Shown here one piece after another: positions 14,694-42,647 of a DNA stretch of 64,000 bases. A model generated the notes under the pieces. The model was not told where the DNA came from. It searched no databases and saw only the letters and a list, made by a program, of their open reading frames with translations. Both the position numbers and the translations under genes were made by a program. How positions within the stretch are numbered: the first letter of the stretch is position 1; each line of letters starts with the position of its first letter. The DNA is from Sipunculus nudus (Eukaryota > Annelida > Sipuncula > Golfingiida > Sipunculidae): contig CM049316.1 of assembly GCA_026874595.1 (NCBI GenBank), positions 65,639,176 to 65,703,175 of the forward strand, in the 5' to 3' direction.

Positions 14694-14969
14694 TTATACT
14701 GGCGTTCCCTTGGTATTTTGTTCTTCACTTTTATTTGTTTCAAATATTGTATTAAACTGTCTATGCTCCATGTCTGTGAAGTATGGACCTTTACATCTGC
14801 GTCCAGTGATAGGGTCCACCCACTGTCCTACTGGGAATACAGTTTCTCTGATCTCGTATTTGACTCTCCAGCGCGGTGGGTCTGATGTTGACTGGATACG
14901 CACCACATCTCCGATCGTCTGGATGTCATCAGGATCTGCAGCCCAGTAATGAGCTCGTTTGTGACAATA
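14694..14969 (-). CDS. MRPS17: Mitochondrial ribosomal protein uS17m (MRPS17), exon 2
   Basis: This exon encodes 91 residues and TAA (14694-14696). uS17m is an OB-fold protein of the mitochondrial small ribosomal subunit that binds 12S rRNA early in assembly. The exon starts after acceptor TTTGTATTTCCAG and begins YCHKRAHYWAADPDD. It then has IGDVVRIQ (human TVGDIVLLR), then KYEIRETVFPVGQWVDPITG (human AEIVFKVGKVIDPVTG) and RRCKGPYF. In-frame codons exist upstream to 14981, but the splice acceptor and the alignment with human MRPS17 put the exon start at Y. Joined to exon 1 it gives 131 residues; the human protein has 130, with no gap across the junction. Confidence 0.93.
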   Translation of the reverse strand, partial: YCHKRAHYWAADPDDIQTIGDVVRIQSTSDPPRWRVKYEIRETVFPVGQWVDPITGRRCKGPYFTDMEHRQFNTIFETNKSEEQNTKGTPV

Positions 14970-15329
14970 CTGGAAATACAAAGAAACTAATTTTCAGTAT
15001 AAATTAGTATTAGGAATTGATTAATAAATCATGCTTGATGATTGTAAAGACAAAAACAAGTGACTAATGCGTCATGACACTCAGCTGAATTTGACATGAA
15101 TACAGTTGATGCATGTATTAATTATTGATGTTATGATCTGTTAAAATATATATTAAAGAACCTTGGACAATGACTAGAATGACTTCCAGAGTGCTCAAAA
15201 TCGTCTTTTTTGTCCATCATCCCTAGGAAAAAAGGTAACAGCAAGAAGATTTTTACTAGGATTTCCCTTGGTGCTAAGTTAGAAGTTTCTAAATCAAACT
15301 GCTGATGACTTGTGTTCAACTGACTTATA

Positions 15330-16030
15330 GGGTTCTCAAATCATGTTGTTTCACACTGCTCACAGAACATAGGTCACAATGACCATATTTTGGATGTCAA
15401 AGGAGACATAACGACCTCCATTTGTATTATAAAAGACATTCATAGAGCCAACAGTTAAGATTTGTGACCTGTCTTTCTGGGTGCTCAAAATTAGGTTTTC
15501 TGCTCATAGTTCAGAGAATATAGGTCACAGTGACCCGATTTCAAGATTCAAAGGAGACTTACCGAGGACCTCCCTGAATGTCATATTAGAAGGTTCTAAG
15601 TCCAACAGTAAAGTTAGGTGACATGCCTCACTGTCTAGGTGCTAGTAAACATATTTTTTTCCTATTACTTTCAGAATATAGGTCACCATGACCTACTTTC
15701 AGGTTTCAAAGGAGATTTGGCCAGAGCAACCTAGGATGTTGAGTTATAAGATTCTAGGCCTAACAGTTACAATTTGAATCTTGTCTGAATGTCTGGCTGT
15801 TCAATATCATGTTTCTGGCCAATCACTCAGAGAATTTAGGTCATCACAACCTAATTTCAGGTTTTAAAGAAAATTTGCCCAAAACGTCCCTGGATATTGA
15901 ATTAGAAGATTCTAGGGCTAACAGATTCAGTTTGTGCACATCTGACTTCTCTCAAAATCATATTTGCGACCAGTAGCTCACAGAATATAGGTCACCATGA
16001 CCTAATTTCAGGTTCACAATGAGATCTGAA
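15330..16030. repeat. Five-unit tandem array carrying ERE-like palindromes
   Basis: Units of 151-158 bp repeat the order 'ctcacagaata', an inverted AGGTCA pair, 'atttcaggttt.aaagga.a', then 'gaatttagaaggttcta.g.c.aacagtt'. The palindromes are AGGTCACAATGACCA (15371), AGGTCACAGTGACCC (15522), AGGTCACCATGACCT (15680, perfect), AGGTCATCACAACCT (15838) and AGGTCACCATGACCT (15989, perfect). The unit repeats as a whole, so this is a minisatellite-like array in which the palindrome is the best-kept part. It lies about 360 bp inside the intron from exon 2 of MRPS17. Confidence 0.85.
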
Positions 16031-17261
16031 ACTGTAACTTTTTAGAGGACGGGGGGAATTTTAAGGTACTTTCTTGGGGTAAAATTACTCATATTTAATA
16101 ATAGGTCAAATTTTGCTCCCTCTGCGTTCCTACTTCTTCAACCTCTTATGACATCAAGACTTTTTATCATAGCCATGTATCCATAGCCAGAAAAACAGAT
16201 ACCAGCGTTCAGACCCAGTGTTATTACAGTTGTTTAGACCGACAGCTAACTGGCCTGGTAACCCCCCATGTATTGTCCACATCCTCACAAAGAGAATGTA
16301 GCTTGATGGAGAAGGAACACAGTGGGAGCAAACTTTGACCTATTATTTAGTAAGAGTGGAGGAAAATGTAGCCAATATTTAGGGGTCGCGAAAACTTAGT
16401 TTTATTATTAATGACTAAAGTATATTTATTGTTAATTACTGCATCTAATTTAATTAATACATCAGGTATTTCCTGTTTTACTTTTTTTTGTGTGAATCTT
16501 GATTACAATCACCAGTCTATGGAAATAAGTTTTGGAGTGCTTCATGCGACAGGGGTCTGACTTTGGGTGTCACATATTTAATCTGATTCGTACAAAGGTT
16601 TACTGACCTCCAGGGATGTGTTCTTAACTTGTGTTAGGTAATGCTAAACACAAACATTGAGGCAGTCATAATGGCCATGCTTTAGGCCGCTTTACTGACC
16701 TATACCATTTGAGAATGTCAAACATAACCACAACTGTGGCTGCAAATGTTCATTCAAGCAACTGGGTTTGCTTATATGTATTTTTTAACTGGTTAAGTGC
16801 ACATAAATTGGACAGATTTAAGGCTACTGCTTATCAAATATATTCGCTTTCATCACGTTCCCAAGACAATCCATACAAAAATTATAAAGTGGAACACATG
16901 GGGCCTATTATCACTCTGTTCATTCCTTATCCCTATTTTTTAAATGTGTACTGATTGACATGTTAACTATGATCCTAGACCCATGTTGCATGAAGCAGCC
17001 TCTTCCTGTGACCAAGTGTAAGTACCCTGGTTACTCTAGAGTGCTTAAGCATGACTGGTTACTTTGGGTGGGGGTCACTTCTTCCTACGACCCCCCACCC
17101 CCCCCCTCCACACTCTTTGTAAGAAGGAAGGCCAATAAGTATGTTTTTAAATTTTTTAAGACTTAAATGTTATCTTTGATTAAGTCAAGATACTGTATAT
17201 TACGTTGAATGTTTTTAGCTCAGCTGACTATAAGTCATCTGAGCTATAGTCGTGGTCCATT

Positions 17262-17314
17262 GTCCGTCGTCCGTCCGTCTGTCCGTCCGTCCGTCCGTCC
17301 GTCCGTCCGTCCGT
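17262..17314 (+). repeat. (TCCG)n tetranucleotide tract
   Basis: About eight uninterrupted TCCG copies preceded by imperfect ones. It sits at the same place, just inside the left end of the dispersed repeat, as a degenerate TCCG/GCCG tract at 1376-1420. Confidence 0.9.
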
Positions 17315-18133
17315 AGATGTGGCACGTTTTGAAACCGTAAGACCTAGGAATCCAAAATCCGGCATAATGTTAGATGTCCCCAAGATCTCCTACCAAGCCG
17401 AAAACTGGGTCTTTTCGACTTCGTTCCTTTGAGAAATTAAGGAAAAACCTGAATTTTTCATTAAAAACCTATTTTCACACTTCAGGACTGCCTAATATCA
17501 AAACCACTCATCTGTTTTTCCTCATATTTACCATAAATATTCCTCTATATAGTTCCTATGTACATTCAAGAAAATATGTCTGTATTATATAATTTAAAAA
17601 AGTTATGGACCCAAACATAATGCATTTTGTAAAAAATCAGGAAAGATATTTGATCACTTAACACAAAACATGTTAAAGCTATGGACCTTTCTTCCAGTAA
17701 TATAACTTTAATTAATCAAAATTAAATTGTATACCCAAAATTAGATGAAAATCTTTTAAATTTTTTAAAATATTAATAAAAATAAAAAATTGGTACCTTA
17801 AATTTTGCCCAACTTTGACCATGGCACGTTTTTTTCCTGTAAGTACTGTGGATTTAATTTTCACAGCATGTTTTTGTTACCTTTTCAACTGTTAACACCA
17901 AAAATTTGAAACCAGTTGATCAAAAACTGTAGATTTTATTCAAGTTTTCAAGCACCATGTAACATATTGTATACATCAAGCTAGTGTTATGCAGTTTGCA
18001 AGAGCTCAGCTCCCCAGCTTCAGCTCTTAGTTCCTTAAATTCGGCATACAGCTAGATGTCTCCAAAATCCCCTACCATGCCAACAATTTGGTCACTAGGA
18101 CTTAATACCTTCAAGATATTAATGAAAAACTTC

Positions 18134-18309
18134 ATTTTTCCATTAAAAACCCATTGTTACACTTCAAGACTGCCTAATATCAAAACCACTGATCTGACTT
18201 TAATCATAAATAATATACATATTTTTTCCATTAAAAACCCATTGTTACACTTCAAGACTGCCTAATATCAAAACCACTGATCTGACTTTAATCATAAATA
18301 ATATACATA
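18134..18309 (+). repeat. Exact 88-bp tandem duplication inside the dispersed repeat
   Basis: The block starting ATTTTTCCATTAAAAACCC and ending AATAATATACAT occurs twice head to tail (18134-18221 and 18222-18309) with at most a one-base length difference in the T-run. The near identity implies a recent local duplication. Confidence 0.85.
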
Positions 18310-20001
18310 TTTTTCTGCACATGCCAGAATGATGTCAGTATTGCGTAATTGTTTTAAGTTATGGGCCCAAACATAATGCACTTTGTAAAAAATCAAGAAA
18401 TATATTTACTCCCTTAACAAGGGGATTGCTGAAGCTAGAGATTTTTTGTCAGGGATGTAACATTATTTAATCAAGATTCAATTGAATACCCAAAATTAGT
18501 TATGAATTTTTCAAATTTTATAAGTTATTAGTATAAATGTAAAATTAGTAACTTAAATTTTGCCCAACTTTGACCATGGCACGTTTGTTTCCTGTGAGCA
18601 CTGTTGATATAATTTTCATATCATGCACACATAAGGATTTCAGCTTTTAAGTTTAGAAAGCTGAAAGAAATTGGCCAAAAATTGTAGCTTTTATTAATGT
18701 TTTTATGAGACCCTGTCAGACTTTGGCTCTCTCCAGCCCCTCTTGAGTCACCTGTATGTTGACCTTGTTGACCTTTCATCAAATTATGCATTCTTGAGGT
18801 GAGGCATACAGGGAATCCAGGCAGCTTATGGCCAGCCACAGTTGATCCAGGTGTCCAACCCAACTCATCTAGTAGTTTTAACCAACTACATACAATAAAC
18901 AATAAATTAATAAATTTTTATTGGTTTTTAATAAAAAATTAATGAAAAATAGAAAAGGAATTTGTTAGTTTATTATAACAGGATATTAACTTGCAGTTAC
19001 TGATGATATAAGAATCTTGTATCGATGGATAGAATGTCACATATTCCAAATAACACCATGCAGTCACCTATGGCATTTTTCAGTTCAATTTTAATGATAA
19101 AGAAGTAAATCATATCATTCATTACTAATCATTAGGGATCATATGATGGAAATTAATGATAGACAAAGATGCATTTGATAATATTAATCTAGATTCCTAC
19201 TGTGTCTAGTGTGTACATTGATGTGAAATTAGTCCAAAATGAATTTATTACAGTTATTTTTTAATATAAATAAAAGCCATAAAACCAGGTACTTATGATC
19301 GTTATTTAAATGTGTGAATTTTGTATATTCTGGATTCTCAACATCATTGTTTGGTGAAAACTGAATAAATACCAGACATGGTGAGAATACTTTGTAATTG
19401 TATTTAAATACGAATATGATTATGTACTCCATTATAAAATTTCTTGCATAAAGAATGGGAATTCAGGTAAAAATGAAAGTATATGAATACCAGTGCAAAT
19501 ACTTTCAAAATGTATTCATGAATGCATTCATGAATAAATTCTTTAATATTATTTTAATAATCATTTCAGTTATATTTCATTTTAAAAAATCATATGATTC
19601 TCTTATTATTTTTAATAAAAATTATATTTGGGACAATATTTGTATTTTTTTTTAATTAATAGTTAAACCCTTATATTATATATTCTGCTTATAAGTTATA
19701 TTGCCAAGTCAAAATCTGTGTGACAATAGTACTCCATTTGTTAATAAAATAAATGAAATCAATCCTCTTCCCTTTCTCCAAAAGTACTATCAAAATCATA
19801 CATAAGATAAACAACAACAACTCATATTACAGCTTATATTTATTACCACACAAAAACCAGCATGTGCCTCATTTCTAAATAATATTTTTTTATCATATAT
19901 AACAGCTGAGCGTCGTGACCCATAGGTCCCTTGTTTGAATGCATATAACCGACTTTGAGGTTATGACGAGGTTATGATAGTATATGGATGGATGGTATGA
20001 T

Positions 20002-20647
20002 AGGATACCAGTCGATTCGTCACCACAGTCATTTCGTCACCAATTAACATGCGGTACCAAACGGTCAATTTGTCACTAATGTTTTGTATGATAAAATGTC
20101 TATCTATTACAATTAAAATTAAAATACACAATGATACCTATACTAAAAAGTTTGTTTGGTTGTTAATACTTTTAATTAACGGCTCAGGATACACCATTAG
20201 TGGATTACATGTAAATACAAACATTGCGCAGCATGGCCAACTGGCCACCATGGTATTCAGGGCTATTTACGTCACGGTTCATCGTAAACAATTCCCCCAC
20301 GGTAGCCCGTTTGAAATGTTTTTTTTTATTACATACACGTAGGTGTTTTCGTTAAATAAAATCCACGTCCACAATTGACATAGAGGAACAAGCCGCCAAA
20401 AGAACTATAATATCTGAACTGGCCTTTGCAGAGTAAAAACGCTTTTTTTGCAGTAACTATTTTCCCGGCCATATTTCACTCTTCTGTCCTTCAGTATTCT
20501 GTTCTTCTGTCATTCCCTATGCATTTGAATTGCTGATTTTAAGAATGTGCCAGATCAAGTCCATACGCCTGACGTATCCTGAGAGTTACTTCGTCACCAA
20601 TTTCCTGTGGTGACGAAATGACTGTGGTGACAAAACGACTGGTTCCC
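20002..20647. mobile_element. MITE-like element, 646 bp, with terminal inverted repeats and 7-bp TSD
   Basis: The left end reads ACCAGTCGATTCGTCACCAC then AGTCATTTCGTCACCA. The right end, reverse-complemented, reads ACCAGTCGTTTTGTCACCAC then AGTCATTTCGTCACCA. Flanking GTATGAT occurs at 19995-20001 and 20648-20654, a plausible target-site duplication. The motif TTCGTCACC is also repeated inside the ends. The interior has one 97-aa open frame (20049-20342) that resembles no transposase, so the element is non-autonomous. Superfamily is not assigned. Confidence 0.75.
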
Positions 20648-20676
20648 GTATGATGTTTAGGATTCATATAATGGTA

Positions 20677-21148
20677 GACCTAGTTGTGGCTCTGTTGTAA
20701 ACACAGAGCCACAGGTCCCTGCCTTCATTTATCTAGCGGACAGGAGCGCATGCAAGAGACTACGATGTACCCATTTTAAGGACATTCAGCCTGTGGTTAT
20801 AAGCCCCGGCTGAATGGCTGTTGATTGTTTCTTGCTAGCCCTGTGCACTGCATGTGTTACATCATCACTGCAAACTTACTGGCGCACCCAGCTGAAATGT
20901 GAAACAATCAATGTGTTACCTTGGTAACAATGCTGCCTATGGCCAATGGTCGGTGTGTATGGAGTGGTCCAGTTATAGGAAGGACAATCACACCATGCAC
21001 CAGTGATGATGCATGTACAATGACTCTTGAAACAATCAGCACACGGGGCACTGGACACCCAACATCAGGTGTAGCCTGTTCCCATCCGCTAGATAAATGG
21101 AGGCTGGGGCCTGTGGCTCTTTGTTTACAACAGAGCCACAACTGGGTC
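20677..21148. mobile_element. MITE-like element, 472 bp, long terminal inverted repeats, TA target
   Basis: The left end is GACCTAGTTGTGGCTCTGTT then GTAAACACAGAGCCACAG; the right end, reverse-complemented, is GACCCAGTTGTGGCTCTGTT then GTAAACAAAGAGCCACAG. The inverted repeats align for about 65 bp (to TTTATCTAGCGGA) and weakly further in. Both flanks are TA (20675-20676 and 21149-21150), the target of Tc1/mariner-like elements. The left end can fold on itself, because TGTGGCTCTGT pairs with ACAGAGCCACA. There is no transposase. The four overlapping open frames here come from the inverted repeat and are not genes. Confidence 0.75.
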
Positions 21149-21338
21149 TAATATAACGGGGAAGTAAGAGGCAGATAAAAATAAGAGGCTTTAATTAAAA
21201 TTCAGGCAGCAGGACATAAACTGTTCACAGAAATGTTGTGCATCCGAGAGGTGCGTGAATTATTCTACAGTCGTGCCAATCAATCGATCGATCCATCCAT
21301 CAACCCTTATGGTTATAACATTAACAATCACCAAATTG

Positions 21339-22434
21339 GGGAGGGTATAATTCGCTGATCAGCGCGCTGATCAGCGGTCTGCAGTATAAAACGCTGATCA
21401 GCGCGCTGATCAGCCATCTTTCAATTAAAGCATTAATTTGAGGCAAATTATCTCCCATATAGCAACATCCGCCTATTTTGTGATAAAATATGATTAAAAG
21501 ACACCTTTCCTATCGGTATTACATATTTACAAACATATGCATATATTTTTATTGTGTTCATAATTATACATGAAACGCAAGTTACCTGCCAGTGACTATT
21601 TCGCTGATCAGCGGCGCTGATCATGAACCTTTCAATCCAAGCATTTATTTTAGACAAATAAGCCCCATATAACAACCTCCGACTATTATGTGATTAAATG
21701 TGATTAAAAGATACATATTCTATAAGTGTTTTATATTCACAAACAACGAAAACACTTTTAATGTGTTACTTAATATGCATGAAACCTTTCTACCACCTAT
21801 ATCGCTGATCAGCAAACTGGGCAATCGCTCATCGGCAATGATTTACGTACTTCTTGACTATGATTCCTGTCATCTGTGATTCTCTATAATGGTTATATTG
21901 AAGGTTCTCAGTTGTTTTACTTATACCCTGTGAAACCGAGTGATTGCCAATGCATCGCCCATACCAGGCTACTTCATATACAACTTTAAAATATCAGTGC
22001 CCCACCGACCACTCGGAGATATTAGTTAACAGCGCTGCAGTAATTTGTTGTCAGGTGTTCACTGGCCAGATGACTGAAGTGAGATCAATAGGTGAGATAT
22101 ACACTTAGTATGAATGTATATAAAATTTGAATTTATCAAAAATAAAAATGTTAAATGTATATAGCCTTAATAAAAGACTGATTATCCTCTTATTTTTATT
22201 AAGAACTGTACGTATATAGCCTAAGGATTCTTTCATTCTTCATGTACAATATAATCGTTCCTTAAAAACTTTCACAAGTTTCTTTACATCCCTCTTATAT
22301 TTCCCTTTTTTGCATTTAACAAGTTGGTCGCCAGAATCTTTTTCAAAACCTTTATATAGATGATCTGATCGATTTTAACTTGATGTTGATAGATTACTCC
22401 TGTTTTAATCCCACATATATATATTATATTATAT

Positions 22435-22478
<44 letters not shown>

Positions 22479-24599
22479 TGAAGTAACGTCAAAGAATAAC
22501 TCCACAAAAAATATTATCGGTATTTATTTTTTTTTCATTTTATAACAGGACATTTCCATTATTTTGTAAAAATGTCCGCATATCTATTGCTTTAACATCG
22601 TTACTTATATATTTCTAAAAAAAATGATTGGAATAGGAATGCTTTTCATAGTTTTGGAAAACAGTATATACTATCAACATAAATATACTGAGTACTAGAA
22701 AGGTTGAAGGAGTAATTACTTTTAATTACAACACTATAATAAATCATCACCGTTTCTTTTTTAACTTTTAAGGGTAGTGAATGCCGATAAACGGTGTTAA
22801 AACAATAAGGTAACAGGATGGATGTAACATCTAAATTTTACAATGGCATTGTTATTCAAAACTTCATCGTTTTTATAGTGTGTTAGCCTGTTAGGTATTA
22901 TAAAATATTAAACTTTTAAAATATTTATTATAAAAGAAGTCTGCATGCTTTAAGTAATAAATTTGCCAATGATTTCATTTATTTTAATTCAACACAGTTC
23001 TTCTTCTTTAACACCGTTATATGTTGAAATAGGCATAATTTCAAGAAATAAATAAAATGACTTAGAAACATATTAGAAAATTATTTTATCGCTAACATTT
23101 TTATTGACCGAGGAAGATTGCTATAAATTTCCCTTCTATATTTATTGCACTATACCTTCTGTGGGTTGCAGTTTTATTTTGTTTCAGGATATAATCGGAA
23201 CACATTAAAATTAAGAATACGCAGTTTACAAGGTTAAAATATATTTTTAATAAACAATACATCGTACAAGTGAACCTTCCATATTTTTTCTAAATAAATT
23301 ATGCGGGACCGCGCAAGTCACAGTGTTGAAATTGATGATACACTTGTAGGGCATTAAATTAGCCGAAACTATAATTCAACATGAAGTACCTGCTCTGATG
23401 AAAGAAATTATATATACCAGTAGTTTACATTTTTATTGCCACAATAGACTCCATAAAATAAATATTTAGATGTTATTTTTCAGATGCTGTATACCTGCTG
23501 AAATGGGAAGTTTTTCGTAGAAAGACCCTTCCATTAAATTGTATATCCTTTGACGGTTACTTTAGGAAAACGACTCAATATGTCTTCTTCTAAATAATTA
23601 ATGATTGCCCTCTCACTTTTGTCTGATCAAAAAACACCTTGTCTTACCAGTTTCTATAAAGGCCTCCTTTTAAATCAATTTTTTTTTTTAAATCAACAAT
23701 ATTACCGATTGCAAAAAAGTCCACAGTCCACAATATTTTGCTGTTGGTTCATTAGTGGCATTTTCACTTAAATATATGTGCAAGATATTGTTAATAAATT
23801 AAATTTTTAAATTCATTCAAACTTAATTTTAATTTCAGCTATTTTTATCACCTGGCCGGTGAAAATCTACCAGCAAATTACTGCAGCGCCCCCTACCGTT
23901 AGCTAATGTCTCCTGTGGGGAACAGATTTTTGTAAATTGTATGTCATTGTGGTACGATGTTTAGTCAGTCATTCGGTTTTCACAGGAAATAATTAAGTAA
24001 AACAACTGAGAGGCTTATATGTTACCATTATAGAGAATCACAGATGACAGGTATCATAGTCATAAATACGTAAGTCATTGCCGATGAGCACTATATCAGC
24101 GTCAAGGCTCAAGCGATTGCGCAGTTTGCTGATCAGCGAAATAGGTGGTAGAAAGGTTTCATGCATAATAAGTAACATATTAAAAGTGTTTTCGTTGTTT
24201 GTGAATATGAAACACTTATAGAATATGTATTTTTAAATCATATTTAATCACACAATAGTCGGAGGTTGTTACATGGGGGCTAATTTGTCTAAAATAAATG
24301 CCTGGATTGAAAGGTTCCTAATCAGCGCCCCTGATCAGCGAAATAGTTACTGGCAGGTAACTTGCGTTTCATGTATAATTATGAACACACAAAAAATGCA
24401 TAAATTTGTAAATACGTAATACTGAAAAGAAAGGTGTCTTTTAATCATATTTAAACACAAAATAGGCGGAGGTTGCTATATTGGAGATAATTTGCCTCAA
24501 ATAAATGCTTTAATTGAAAGGTGGCTGATCAGCGCGCTGATCAGCGTTTTATACTGCAGACCGCTGATCAGCGCGCTGATCAGCGAATTATACCCTCCC
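21339..24599. mobile_element. 3.26-kb element with ~740-bp terminal inverted repeats and 9-bp TSD (MULE-like, non-autonomous)
   Basis: Ends are GGGAGGGTATAATTCGCTGA and its reverse complement. The perfect 9-bp duplication ACCAAATTG flanks it at 21330-21338 and 24600-24608. The arms (about 21339-22074 and 23848-24599) align along their length with substitutions and small indels. Each arm starts with back-to-back copies of the 12-bp palindrome CGCTGATCAGCG (left arm: 21353, 21365, 21392, 21404), then has two degenerate ~200-bp direct units, each closed by another copy (21602, 21803). The ~1.8-kb centre is very AT-rich with no open frame of 60 codons. A 9-bp duplication plus very long inverted repeats is typical of Mutator-like elements; that assignment is inference. 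Confidence 0.85.
22435..22475. repeat. (AT)n microsatellite preceded by ATATT pentamers
   Basis: ATATT/TATAT pentamer units (about 22418-22440) run into uninterrupted AT dinucleotides in the centre of the long-inverted-repeat element. Confidence 0.95.
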
Positions 24600-24662
24600 A
24601 CCAAATTGTGGGAGCCCCAAATGATCACCGACACTGTGAGCGATATTAGATGAATAACTCAC

Positions 24663-24782
24663 CATCATCTGTTTTTTGTCTAATCGCATTTTGAAGACTC
24701 TGACTTTTACGGCTTTCAGATATTCACTCTTCTGAACAACATGGCCTATGTACATGGCCACTCGGGAGTCTGGCCGTGGCAT
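24663..24782 (-). CDS. MRPS17: Mitochondrial ribosomal protein uS17m (MRPS17), exon 1
   Basis: This is 40 codons from ATG (24780-24782) to donor GTGAGT, phase 0. It encodes MPRPDSRVAMYIGHVVQKSE and then YLKAVKVRVFKMRLDKKQMM. It aligns with the human MRPS17 N-terminus (WIVGKVIGTKMQKTAKVRV, then RLVLDPYLLK): the GKVI-type strand, the basic KxxKAVKVRV strand of the OB fold, and the LD turn all fall in place. Reading continues open past the donor, but only the spliced product aligns with exon 2. No cleavable mitochondrial presequence is evident, as for human MRPS17. Exon 1 ends 64 bp from the end of a large transposable element. Confidence 0.92.
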
Positions 24783-34793: not shown

Positions 34794-37225
34794 TTAAAGA
34801 AGTCCTGACCGCAGGCGTGACCAAAATTGGGACACACTGTTGGTCAAGTCTTCCTCTGGCCAAACAAGGTAAGTGTGACGTCTCATAATGTCTAAAAGCG
34901 TTTGCGGCACATCATTAGATCGAACGTCCTCGAGCAAAATGACAATAATTTTATCAATTCCCCTTTCCATCATATGTTCCCGATTCATATGCATTTCAAA
35001 TTTACACCAAGCACTTCGAACAAAATGTCGTGACAGCACAATGATCGTTTTGCGACTCGTGGATAGAGCGCGCAAAATGTATTCTTCGATAGGCCATCCA
35101 ACTTCAAAATCCCTGTAATGAACAAAAAGGCGAAATGGGGTCTCTCCGCCTTCCATGTTAGGGATAAGATGACTGATTACCCATTGAATATTCTTCTCGC
35201 TGTAGGCCACGAAGGCATCGTATTGAAAATTTCCTTTTTCTTCGAATAATTCAGCATACAGTTCACGCCGAATTTTCAGACGGAGGCAAAAATATTTCAT
35301 GCCCCATGTGCGACAATAATCACAATATATTATAAATAATAGTGTCAAACAAACGATGACGATGGCAAGTATACTTAATATTAAGTACAACCATTCCATG
35401 TTTAAACACTGACGTTCAAGTTTAGGCAGAATGTCTTTTTGCAGCAGGGAGAAGGGTATATTTTGCCCTTGAAGATTACATGATATATCCGAAAAGTTAG
35501 CCAGGTTACGTCGGTATCGGTACAGCCATCTGAGAAAATATAACGATCTACATGAGCATTCTATCGGGTTGCCCCTCAGGTCCAGTTCAAACCTCTCATC
35601 CGCTGTCCGATTTCTCTTAATTACATTACTCAGCACGGAGAGAACTTGTCTATTTAGGTAGGTTATTATGTTCATTGAAACGTTGAGAAGGCCCAGATTA
35701 CTCAAATAAGTGACACCCTGTGAACTGAGGTCGGTTATTCTGTTGTTTGAAAGGTCAAGAGTTACCAGATTTATCAAACCAGTGATACCGGGAGGAATAT
35801 CAAGTAAATTGTTATTTTTTTAATATCAGGACCCCTAAACGAGGATGGGTTGAAGTGTTGAAAATATTTCGTGATATAGTATAGATATTGTTGTTACTCA
35901 GATCTAAATATTCTATATTATGTAAATAAGGAAATGCTCCTCCGTCCATCGACAAGAGACCCCCAAGATTGTTGTAGGAAAAGTCTATATAAACAATAGC
36001 TGCTGCCAAGTTCTTACCAAAAGCATTCTTTGAGAGATAGCGGCAATCGTTTCTAGAAAAAATCGATATGCAGCCCATTTCCTGGATTGCACAGTTCAAT
36101 GCTTCCGAAAATATACAAAAATTGATTGCGGCCTATACCTATGAATACATTTCTGATAAATCCCTGGTTCCATAAGTACAAATTAAAACTTGGCGGAACC
36201 GATGTGACACCAAATGTATCATAGGCAACTAAACGAGTAAGACTTGTAGGCCAGTAAAACAATGATTGGGTGTAAAGGTTGGCGTTTTGTAATGATAGGT
36301 TGCTGGTGTTCTTATCATGAACCGAATCAATTGCAGATAGTTTAAGAAAAGTATTAGACTGTATGCTGCATATGTTGTATAGAGATACGTGGATTGTACC
36401 TGAAGAACTAAGCATTTTCATATCTTGATGGTAATTTCTTCCTTGCTTGGTGCCGCCAACAGGCAAGGTTTGATAGCTTATGTCGAGAATTTTTAAACGT
36501 TCCAATCCAAATAAAAATGTGTATGTAAACAAATGGTTCATATAAAGGTCGAGTTCCTCTAAATTTGGTGTATATGCACCAAAAGAGCCGCGGATGTAAC
36601 AAATAAAATTTTCACGGAGGAAAAGTTTCCTGAGTGAAGGAGCTTTGATTGATTCAAGGACAGAAATCGTGATGTCTTTTTTAGAACATTCGTTCATCGG
36701 TGTTATACCAGAAAGATTCAATATATTTAGTTTCCCTTTTGGAAGAGAACGCATAAAGTATATCAAAGTGCGATATCTATTCTCCCCTAAAAAAGTCCTG
36801 GACATGTCTAGTTCCACCAAATTTATGAGGGGTGCCATGGCATCAGACATGTTTACTTGCTCTTCATCCAACCCGAGGAAATTGTCACTGAGATCTAATA
36901 ACTGTAACCGCGACAGACCCTGGAATGCTTCTGTATCCAAAACTTTGATTTTCGATTTCCGCAGCTGTAACTTAATTAAATTGAGACATTTGGCAAAAGT
37001 ATTGTTCTTTACCCTGGATATATTGTTTCCAGACAGTATAAATTCTGTGACGTTATCTTGACATAATTTCGGTATCTCGGTCATCCCTAGGTTGCTGCAG
37101 TTAACCCTCATGAATGCGCCAGTACTTGTACAACGACATGGAGCGCACCTTTTGGACTGTACTTTGGAACTAAAAACTATATATGCCAAAAGAATGACAT
37201 ATATAAGTGATAAGGTAAAGCTCAT
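34794..37225 (-). CDS. Toll-like receptor, single coding exon, two apparent one-base frameshifts
   Basis: This is a type I membrane receptor of innate immunity, signalling through TIR-TIR contacts with MyD88-type adaptors. Ignoring the two frame breaks it would be about 809 residues: signal peptide (1-24, MSFTLSLIYVILLAYIVFSS), LRRNT with Cys 27, 30, 32, 43 and 55, many LRRs (LxxLxLSxNN, for example LVTLDLSNNRI), one LRRCT (NPIECSC...ISC, about 552-606), TM (about 611-634, YLILSILAIVIVCLTLLFII) and TIR (about 667-807). TIR box 1 is YDAFVAYS, box 2 HYRDFEVG, box 3 FW. One LRRCT makes it a single-cysteine-cluster TLR. Frame breaks: stop at 36053-36055 beside an A6 run (36057-36062), and stop at 35812-35814 beside a T7 run (35815-35821). 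Removing one base near each restores an LRR-like reading. It is therefore either a young pseudogene or an assembly error; the intact TIR favours the latter. Confidence 0.93.
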
Positions 37226-37330
37226 TTTTGGTCTCTCTTCAAGTTGTTAGGAGATAAATCCTGAGATGCAGGGTATACCTTTCCGTGACTCAAACGTCCT
37301 CCATCCCTAGATCAGCTGAAACAGTTTGCC
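37226..37330 (-). other. Probable TLR 5' UTR with an upstream splice acceptor
   Basis: On the - strand TACTTTATTTGCAG ends at 37331, followed by 105 bases with no ATG competing in a strong context before the TLR start. Many animal TLR genes have an intronless coding region preceded by a non-coding exon, so a 3' splice site here is plausible. The matching donor may be at 38467. Confidence 0.4.
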
Positions 37331-42219: not shown

Positions 42220-42489
42220 CACTTTTCTAACCATTTCACAAAGCTCTCAATAGATGGCGCTGTCACACACACAAAAACAAATTTCAAGCAAAACGTTCTT
42301 TCTAGGAACTTGAAAGAAACTTCCCCAGCATAGTTTTCCCCAGCCTTTTTAATGCACTTTTCTAACCATTTCACAAAGCTCTCAATAGATGGCGCTGTCA
42401 CACACACAAAAACAAATTTCAAGCAAAACGTTATTTCTAAGAACTTGAAAGAAACTTCCCCAGCATAGATTTCCCCAGCCTTTTTAATG
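42220..42489. repeat. 135-bp tandem duplication (two copies)
   Basis: The block starting CACTTTTCTAACCATTTCAC and ending CCCCAGCCTTTTTAATG occurs at 42220-42354 and 42355-42489 with only a few substitutions. The period is 45 codons, and one - strand frame stays open across most of both copies (repeating TAPSIESFVKWLEKC). Coding is possible but not shown; the motif ATAGATGGCGCTGTCA occurs in each copy. Confidence 0.9.
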
Positions 42490-42647
42490 CTTTAATAATG
42501 CCTTAACAGCTTTTCGTATGCGAGGACCGGCAAGTCCTCACAGGAAAAAAAACCTCGCGCGTTTGGTGAGCCGTCAATATCGTGCCCTTTAAAGTTCGGT
42601 TATACAAACACACACTCACAACACACACACAACGCACTCTCTCAAAC

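What the first reader, a model, noticed from the sequence alone, without database searches (positions are those of the whole stretch)
21339..24599. Long-inverted-repeat, MULE-like element with palindrome-studded ends, beside MRPS17 exon 1
Seen directly: perfect 9-bp flanking duplication ACCAAATTG; ~740-bp inverted arms; and in each arm back-to-back copies of the 12-bp palindrome CGCTGATCAGCG followed by two ~200-bp direct units, each closed by another copy. Known: 9-bp duplications with very long inverted repeats point to Mutator-like elements. Inference: the palindromes may be repeated transposase binding sites, and the arms would make a very long RNA hairpin if transcribed with the MRPS17 intron. 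I know of no described element with this end structure.
Basis: partly seen in the sequence, partly recalled or inferred. Interest (0 to 1): 0.75.

Follow-up and report, generated by a model that had tools for sequence, protein, structure and literature searches.

The report
Jumping DNA with long mirrored ends
This is one of many copies of a non-coding jumping DNA element with long mirror-image ends, sitting in the first intron of a mitochondrial ribosomal protein gene; it is a new family of a known kind rather than a new kind of system.

Summary
A 3,261-bp element (21339-24599) is bounded by a perfect 9-bp duplication, has inverted arms of about 0.8 kb, and carries 12 copies of the palindrome CGCTGATCAGCG (0 of 100 shuffles reach 12). 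The host assembly settles the main doubt. The 24-bp terminus occurs 266 times (control 0). Of 51 copies with both ends found, 43 have an exact 9-bp duplication and 4 more have one mismatch; 0 of 2,550 wrongly paired flanks match. In 40 of 48 arms the four outer palindromes keep their positions within one base. Some copies at different sites are 98.9-99.8% identical. No transposase was detected in the copies examined, and none of 131 scored MULE-domain matches lies within 85 kb of the 172 exact termini. It is a non-autonomous, foldback-type transposon, most likely mobilised by a Mutator-like (MULE) transposase; that rests on the 9-bp duplication, GGG ends and long arms, not on a linked transposase. 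'No described element with this end structure' is too strong: Tetris and Muta1 share main features. The element lies inside MRPS17 intron 1, 63 bp past the donor. Inner palindromes are not clearly conserved; the outer 78 bp are.

The parts
21330..21338 (.). left copy of 9-bp target site duplication ACCAAATTG
24600..24608 (.). right copy of 9-bp target site duplication ACCAAATTG
21339..24599 (.). whole non-autonomous foldback transposon, 3,261 bp
   Evidence: copies in the host genome
21339..22144 (+). left inverted arm; outer ~560 bp strongly conserved, remainder diverged
23786..24599 (-). right inverted arm
21353..21376 (.). outermost back-to-back palindrome pair, left
21392..21415 (.). second palindrome pair, left (last base changed)
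21403..21613 (+). left ~205-bp unit A, closed by exact palindrome 21602-21613
21614..21814 (+). left ~200-bp unit B, closed by palindrome 21803-21814 (1 mismatch)
24562..24585 (.). outermost back-to-back palindrome pair, right
24523..24546 (.). second palindrome pair, right (1 mismatch)
24329..24535 (-). right ~205-bp unit A with palindrome 24329-24340 (1 mismatch)
24127..24328 (-). right ~200-bp unit B with palindrome 24127-24138 (1 mismatch)
22145..23785 (.). AT-rich core (27% GC), no coding family found, shared by other copies
24663..24782 (-). MRPS17 exon 1 (coding part); GTGAGT donor starts at 24662
14970..24662 (-). MRPS17 intron 1 (phase 0, 9,693 nt), which contains the element; coding sequence continues in exon 2 from 14969

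Best explanation
It is a non-autonomous cut-and-paste DNA transposon of the foldback type. A transposase supplied in trans, most likely Mutator-like, recognises the two identical 78-bp ends (GGGAGGGTATAATT, then two back-to-back pairs of a 12-bp palindrome). It cuts at the GGG termini and inserts the element with a 9-bp staggered cut. The palindromes most likely serve as repeated, two-fold symmetric docking sites for dimeric transposase, and the ~200-bp units arose by tandem duplication of subterminal sequence ending in such a site. Shown: shared exact ends, 9-bp duplications, near-identical copies at different sites, conserved outer 78 bp, conserved arrangement. Inferred: cut-and-paste chemistry, MULE transposase, and binding to the palindromes.
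For: There are 266 termini (up to 2 mismatches) against 0 for the reversed pattern. Of 51 copies, 43 have exact 9-bp duplications; 0 of 2,550 wrong pairings do. Near-identical copies have different flanking duplications: L013/L014 99.75%, L015/L016 98.9%, L020/L021 99.0%. The four outer palindromes (up to 2 mismatches) keep positions 15, 27, 54 and 66 within one base in 40 of 48 arms. Columns 1-78 average 98.8% majority agreement against 90.5% for 79-480 in 44 arms. There is no Pfam match at E up to 1 in six frames of the window element. MULEs with 8-11 bp duplications, long TIRs and G/C-rich first bases are described, as are foldback elements assigned to Mutator. The host does carry MULE-domain sequences: 131 matches, 150 of 252 candidates scored.
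Against: No transposase was detected in the copies examined. None of 131 MULE-domain matches lies within 85 kb of any of 172 exact termini; the 94 termini with 1-2 mismatches were not all located, and 102 MULE candidates were not scored. The inner palindrome at 465 is no better conserved than other 12-column windows (68% score as high) and that at 264 only mildly so (14% score as high). The conservation figures are biased: 18 of the 22 copies used came from a similarity search with the window's own outer 422 bp, and ends were recognised by their first 24-26 bp.
Confidence: 0.8

Rival explanations
1. Same kind of non-autonomous foldback element, but mobilised by a transposase outside the MULE superfamily (for example P/Galileo-like, Rehavkus-like or an undescribed one).
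For: No scored MULE-domain match near any exact terminus. Foldback structure is said to evolve in different lineages, with exceptions to Mutator (passages of PMC4079207); that Galileo belongs to the P superfamily is recalled.
Against: 9-bp duplications in 43 of 51 copies, GGG ends and long arms fit MULEs as described. Duplication lengths of 7-8 bp for Galileo and P elements are recalled, not read.
Confidence: 0.15
2. The palindromes are not transposase sites but sites for another protein, for example an element-encoded anti-silencing factor (VANC-like in VANDAL MULEs) or a host regulator.
For: VANC proteins bind short motifs that accumulate by tandem repeat formation in non-coding parts of VANDAL elements (passages of PMC5735166). 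The palindromes here also accumulate in tandem units.
Against: The best conserved palindromes are the four within 78 bp of the ends, where transposase sites are expected. The VANC21 motifs are arrayed in one orientation, and the word palindrome does not occur in that paper's text.
Confidence: 0.15
3. The palindromes act as DNA or RNA structure (cruciform or hairpin), not as protein sites.
For: A back-to-back pair folds on itself (10-bp stem, -15.6 kcal/mol as RNA).
Against: Single copies also occur, and the exact letters of the outer copies, not only their symmetry, are conserved.
Confidence: 0.07
4. Chance or an inverted segmental duplication, not a transposon.
For: Only one odd locus (L111/L112), whose flanks are mirror images of each other.
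Confidence: 0.01

Closest known systems
Tetris (Drosophila virilis foldback transposon; PMC4079207, passages and one section read)
   Same: Non-autonomous, very long inverted arms containing ~220-bp tandem units, 8-10 bp duplications, no conserved reading frames, assigned by its authors to Mutator largely on duplication length, autonomous partner not found.
   Different: No CGCTGATCAGCG-like palindromes at unit junctions were mentioned in what I read; unit number varies and units expanded into satellite arrays; different host.
Muta1 of Aedes aegypti (PMC5225508, passages read)
   Same: MULE classed there as a type 2 foldback element, 8-9 bp duplications, TIR with a terminal palindromic motif plus 12-bp subterminal repeats, over 300 putative non-autonomous derivatives.
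   Different: TIR only 145 bp; palindrome 10 bp and imperfect; repeats not described as palindromic in the passages read; encodes an active transposase.
Plant MULEs with tandem TIRs (PMC3310237, passages read)
   Same: Terminal sequence duplicated in tandem at one or both ends; mostly non-autonomous; some multi-copy.
   Different: Whole TIRs are duplicated rather than subterminal units; no palindromes mentioned in the passages read; plants.
Arthropod MULEs with long TIRs (PMC13359780, passages read)
   Same: TIRs up to 1193 bp by its text (its table gives up to 1527), G/C first bases; authors suggest long TIRs may hold several transposase sites.
   Different: Complete elements with transposase; arm substructure not described in the passages read.

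Membership tests
MULE (Mutator-like) superfamily | 8-11 bp target site duplication | tested here: met
   43 of 51 exact 9 bp, 4 with 1 mismatch, 1 with 2, 1 exact 8, 1 scored as 5, 1 none
MULE (Mutator-like) superfamily | long terminal inverted repeats with G/C-rich ends | tested here: met
   ~0.8-kb arms, GGG ends
MULE (Mutator-like) superfamily | MULE DDE transposase encoded by the element or by an autonomous element with the same ends | tested here: inconclusive
   No Pfam match in this copy, L026 or L060; 30 host MULE segments gave 0 hits in 26 sequences, 30 of 30 self controls hit; no scored MULE match near 172 exact termini; 94 mismatched termini not all located
Foldback-type transposons (structural class) | long inverted arms built of internal direct repeats, with a non-coding middle | tested here: met
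Rehavkus | 9-bp duplication, 26-400 bp TIR, PHD-finger transposase, minisatellite near the 3' TIR (as given) | tested here: inconclusive
   9 bp met; arms longer; no transposase to test; tandem repeat finder shows only an AT run in the core
P superfamily / Galileo | THAP-domain transposase, shorter duplications (recalled) | not tested
   no transposase found; P-type transposases were not searched in the host

The most novel reading that the evidence does not exclude
The element is mobilised by a transposase outside every known 9-bp superfamily, whose recognition code is a spaced array of perfectly two-fold symmetric 12-bp sites (two back-to-back pairs per end plus repeats every ~200 bp), so that end-copy number tunes synapsis.
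Probability: 0.06. Interest if true: 0.6.

Novelty: new member of a known kind. Interest (0 to 1): 0.3.

Why it matters
It adds a recently mobile, well-delimited foldback family with an unusually regular end. With many copies that differ in arm content, it could be used to test whether repeated subterminal sites raise transposition, a question discussed for Tetris and Galileo (PMC4079207) and for tandem-TIR MULEs (PMC3310237). It also puts a potential RNA hairpin of more than 500 pairs into the intron of a mitochondrial ribosomal protein gene, a possible substrate for small-RNA or editing pathways.

Tried and rejected
Autonomous partner: I examined the long or odd copies L026 (5,966 bp), L060 (9,525), L061 (9,320), L062 (6,362), L063, L017 and L023. 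L017 and L061 carry reverse-transcriptase insertions (RVT_1, E 2.9e-36 and 2.2e-12). L062 and L063 share a ~3.2-kb nested insertion, 97-98% identical. L026 holds a nested insertion with 484-bp inverted arms. L060 has ~7 kb of unexplained DNA with no family match below E 0.085. Six-frame Pfam scans were run only for the window element, L026 and L060; L061, L062, L063, L017 and L023 were judged from reading-frame lists and the tblastn below. A weak L060-L047 DNA match looked like a transposase lead but is not collinear. tblastn of 30 MULE segments (of 131 matches) against the copies: the first run read 11 minus-strand loci on the wrong strand; the rerun corrected 10 of these (L044 stayed wrong by frame length) and gave 0 hits in 26 sequences, with 30 of 30 self controls.

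Viral-contig scans with two patterns found 0. A prokaryote scan with the 22-bp double palindrome found one stretch, in a Marinicaulis MAG, taken as chance and not followed.

The highly repeated 607-aa MULE-domain family was considered as the source. Its repeat runs through almost all of the ~9 kb fetched, so its ends are unknown; not linked.

A divergent subfamily seen in L060 was traced (40 of 325 candidates scored; best other copy C4:89729698, 99%); no transposase lead came from it.

Host identity was not established. A mollusc is only a guess from contig sizes and gene content.

Full report
OBSERVATION. The element spans 21339-24599 and is flanked by ACCAAATTG on both sides. Both ends read GGGAGGGTATAATTCGCTGATCAGCG. 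Its arms align over 806/814 bp at 82%. In a gapped alignment identity is 98% in the first 100 columns, 88-96% to about column 600 and 64-76% further in; the outer 78 bp are identical; K2P over 788 aligned positions is 0.153. Twelve copies of CGCTGATCAGCG, each with at most one mismatch, were found in the 64-kb window by a search that allowed two, all in this element; 100 shuffles average 0.47. In each arm two back-to-back pairs (positions 15/27 and 54/66) are followed by two ~200-bp units closed by single copies. Units A and B are 75-76% identical within an arm, and like units are 92-94% identical between arms, so the unit duplication is probably older than this insertion. The two outer pairs are themselves a short tandem duplication, each preceded by GTATAATT or GTATAAAA (sequence).

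SURROUNDINGS. A spliced peptide (with three stray residues at the junction) matches solved uS17m chains, best E 1.9e-14; the exon 1 peptide alone matched nothing. Exon 1 codes at 24663-24782 on the minus strand with donor GTGAGT from 24662, and exon 2 resumes at 14969. The element is therefore inside a 9,693-nt phase-0 intron, 63 bp from the donor. Folding of the two outer 562-nt arms as sense RNA, joined by ten A in place of the real 2.1-kb loop, gives 511 inter-arm pairs at -846 kcal/mol; three folds with one arm shuffled gave -272 to -290. Transcription through it was not tested.

COPIES IN THE HOST. The assembly (1.43 Gb, 153 contigs) was searched. The outer 422 bp gave 40 scored of 330 candidates. 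The core gave 40 scored of 395, whose main rows are 85-97% identical apart from itself. The 24-bp terminus with up to 2 mismatches occurs 130 times forward and 136 reverse, control 0 and 0. Split by the preceding base, exact termini number 97 (C or G), 43 (A) and 32 (T), 172 in all.

I examined 51 copies with both ends: this one, 18 of the 20 regions, three of the four loci, and 29, the latter chosen as convergent pairs of exact termini seen. Dropped: L017 (right end not in the fetched stretch), L027 (left end not found), L063 (right end not found by script). Result: 43 exact 9 bp; 4 with one mismatch; 1 with two; 1 exact 8 bp; 1 scored as 5 bp (L014), which reads as an exact 9-bp duplication if its last 4 terminal bases are missing; and 1 without any (L111/L112). 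Wrongly paired flanks: 0 of 2,550. The 43 exact duplications show no strong sequence preference, 57% A+T.

Copies with nearly identical sequence and different flanking duplications (L013/L014 99.75%, L020/L021 99.0%, L015/L016 98.9%) point to recent movement; the window copy is 97.3% identical to L018 over its full length.

ARCHITECTURE AND CONSTRAINT. In 24 copies (48 arms), 40 arms have all four outer palindromes (up to 2 mismatches) at positions 15, 27, 54 and 66 within one base (my count). The other 8 arms lack one or more or have them shifted. In 44 arms of the 22 copies over 1.5 kb, columns 1-78 average 98.8% and 79-480 average 90.5% majority agreement. Two biases apply: ends were recognised by their first 24-26 bp, and 18 of the 22 copies came from a similarity search with the window's own outer 422 bp. 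The first unit-closing palindrome (264) scores 0.946, reached by 14% of 12-column windows; the second (465) scores 0.888, reached by 68%. So the ends look constrained, but the inner palindromes at most weakly so.

TRANSPOSASE. The window element has no Pfam match at E up to 1 in six frames. The long copies examined are long because of other DNA: reverse-transcriptase insertions in L061 and L017, a shared 3.2-kb insertion in L062 and L063 and a nested inverted-repeat insertion in L026, and unexplained DNA in L060, which has a perfect 9-bp duplication CCACTGGGG. The host has at least 131 MULE-domain matches (150 of 252 candidates scored), but the nearest to any of the 172 exact termini is 85 kb away (157 termini; the other 15,, nearest 585 kb). 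Termini with 1-2 mismatches (94 of 266) were not all located. Thirty host MULE segments gave no tblastn hit in 26 element sequences, while all 30 found their own loci.

INTERPRETATION. A non-autonomous foldback transposon family, recently mobile, most likely driven by a MULE transposase not found here. The 9-bp duplication, GGG ends and long arms meet two MULE criteria; the transposase criterion is inconclusive. By analogy with Muta1, Tetris and Galileo (the last two as discussed in passages of PMC4079207), repeated subterminal motifs are plausible transposase sites. This is inference.

COMPARISON. What I read: passages of PMC5225508, PMC6446971, PMC13359780, PMC3310237 and PMC5735166, and passages plus one section of PMC4079207. 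Tetris is structurally closest. Muta1 shows that a palindromic terminus with 12-bp subterminal repeats exists in an active MULE. Literature searches listed no paper that I recognised as describing this family; for papers other than the six named I saw only listings. Repbase was not available, so a catalogued consensus of this family cannot be excluded.

Noticed in passing
window 20675-21150: A second, short inverted-repeat element (71-bp arms, 90% complementary, 334 bp between) lies about 190 bp left of the transposon, MITE-like; duplications not checked.
   Followed up: no
window 34794-37246, minus strand: Toll-like receptor-type gene: leucine-rich repeats and a TIR domain in different frames of neighbouring open stretches, so intron, frameshift or pseudogene.
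   Followed up: partly
L053, L056, L057, L059, L120, L121: A MULE-domain open frame of 607 aa occurs in 43 of 131 match rows. Two copies are 98% identical over ~8.96 kb, nearly all that was fetched, with no ends and no inverted repeat reported. Could be a large, young mobile unit.
   Followed up: partly
L062 257-3426 and L063 2669-5838: The same ~3.2-kb insertion (97-98% identical) sits at two different places in two copies, with apparent 9-bp and 8-bp duplications of element sequence at its edges.
   Followed up: partly
L026 3052-5766: Nested insertion with 484-bp inverted arms, 95% identical.
   Followed up: no
L111/L112 (G000:C10:6852048-6855912): Copy with its terminal 16 bp repeated at both ends and flanks that are reverse complements of each other: inverted duplication or assembly artefact.
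   Followed up: no
L014 right end: Right end appears to stop at the inner GGG of GGGAGGG, with a 9-bp duplication in that register, suggesting alternative cleavage at either GGG, or a small deletion.
   Followed up: partly
G000 contigs C5 and C6: Exact termini are uneven: 1 of 157 on C5 and 17 on C6; none of the 15 added later lies on either.
   Followed up: no
L060 2360-9396: About 7 kb of DNA inside a copy with a perfect 9-bp duplication has no family match below E 0.085; captured DNA or nested element.
   Followed up: partly
window 18135-18314: Perfect 88-bp tandem duplication; another of 135 bp at 42220-42490, 97%.
   Followed up: no
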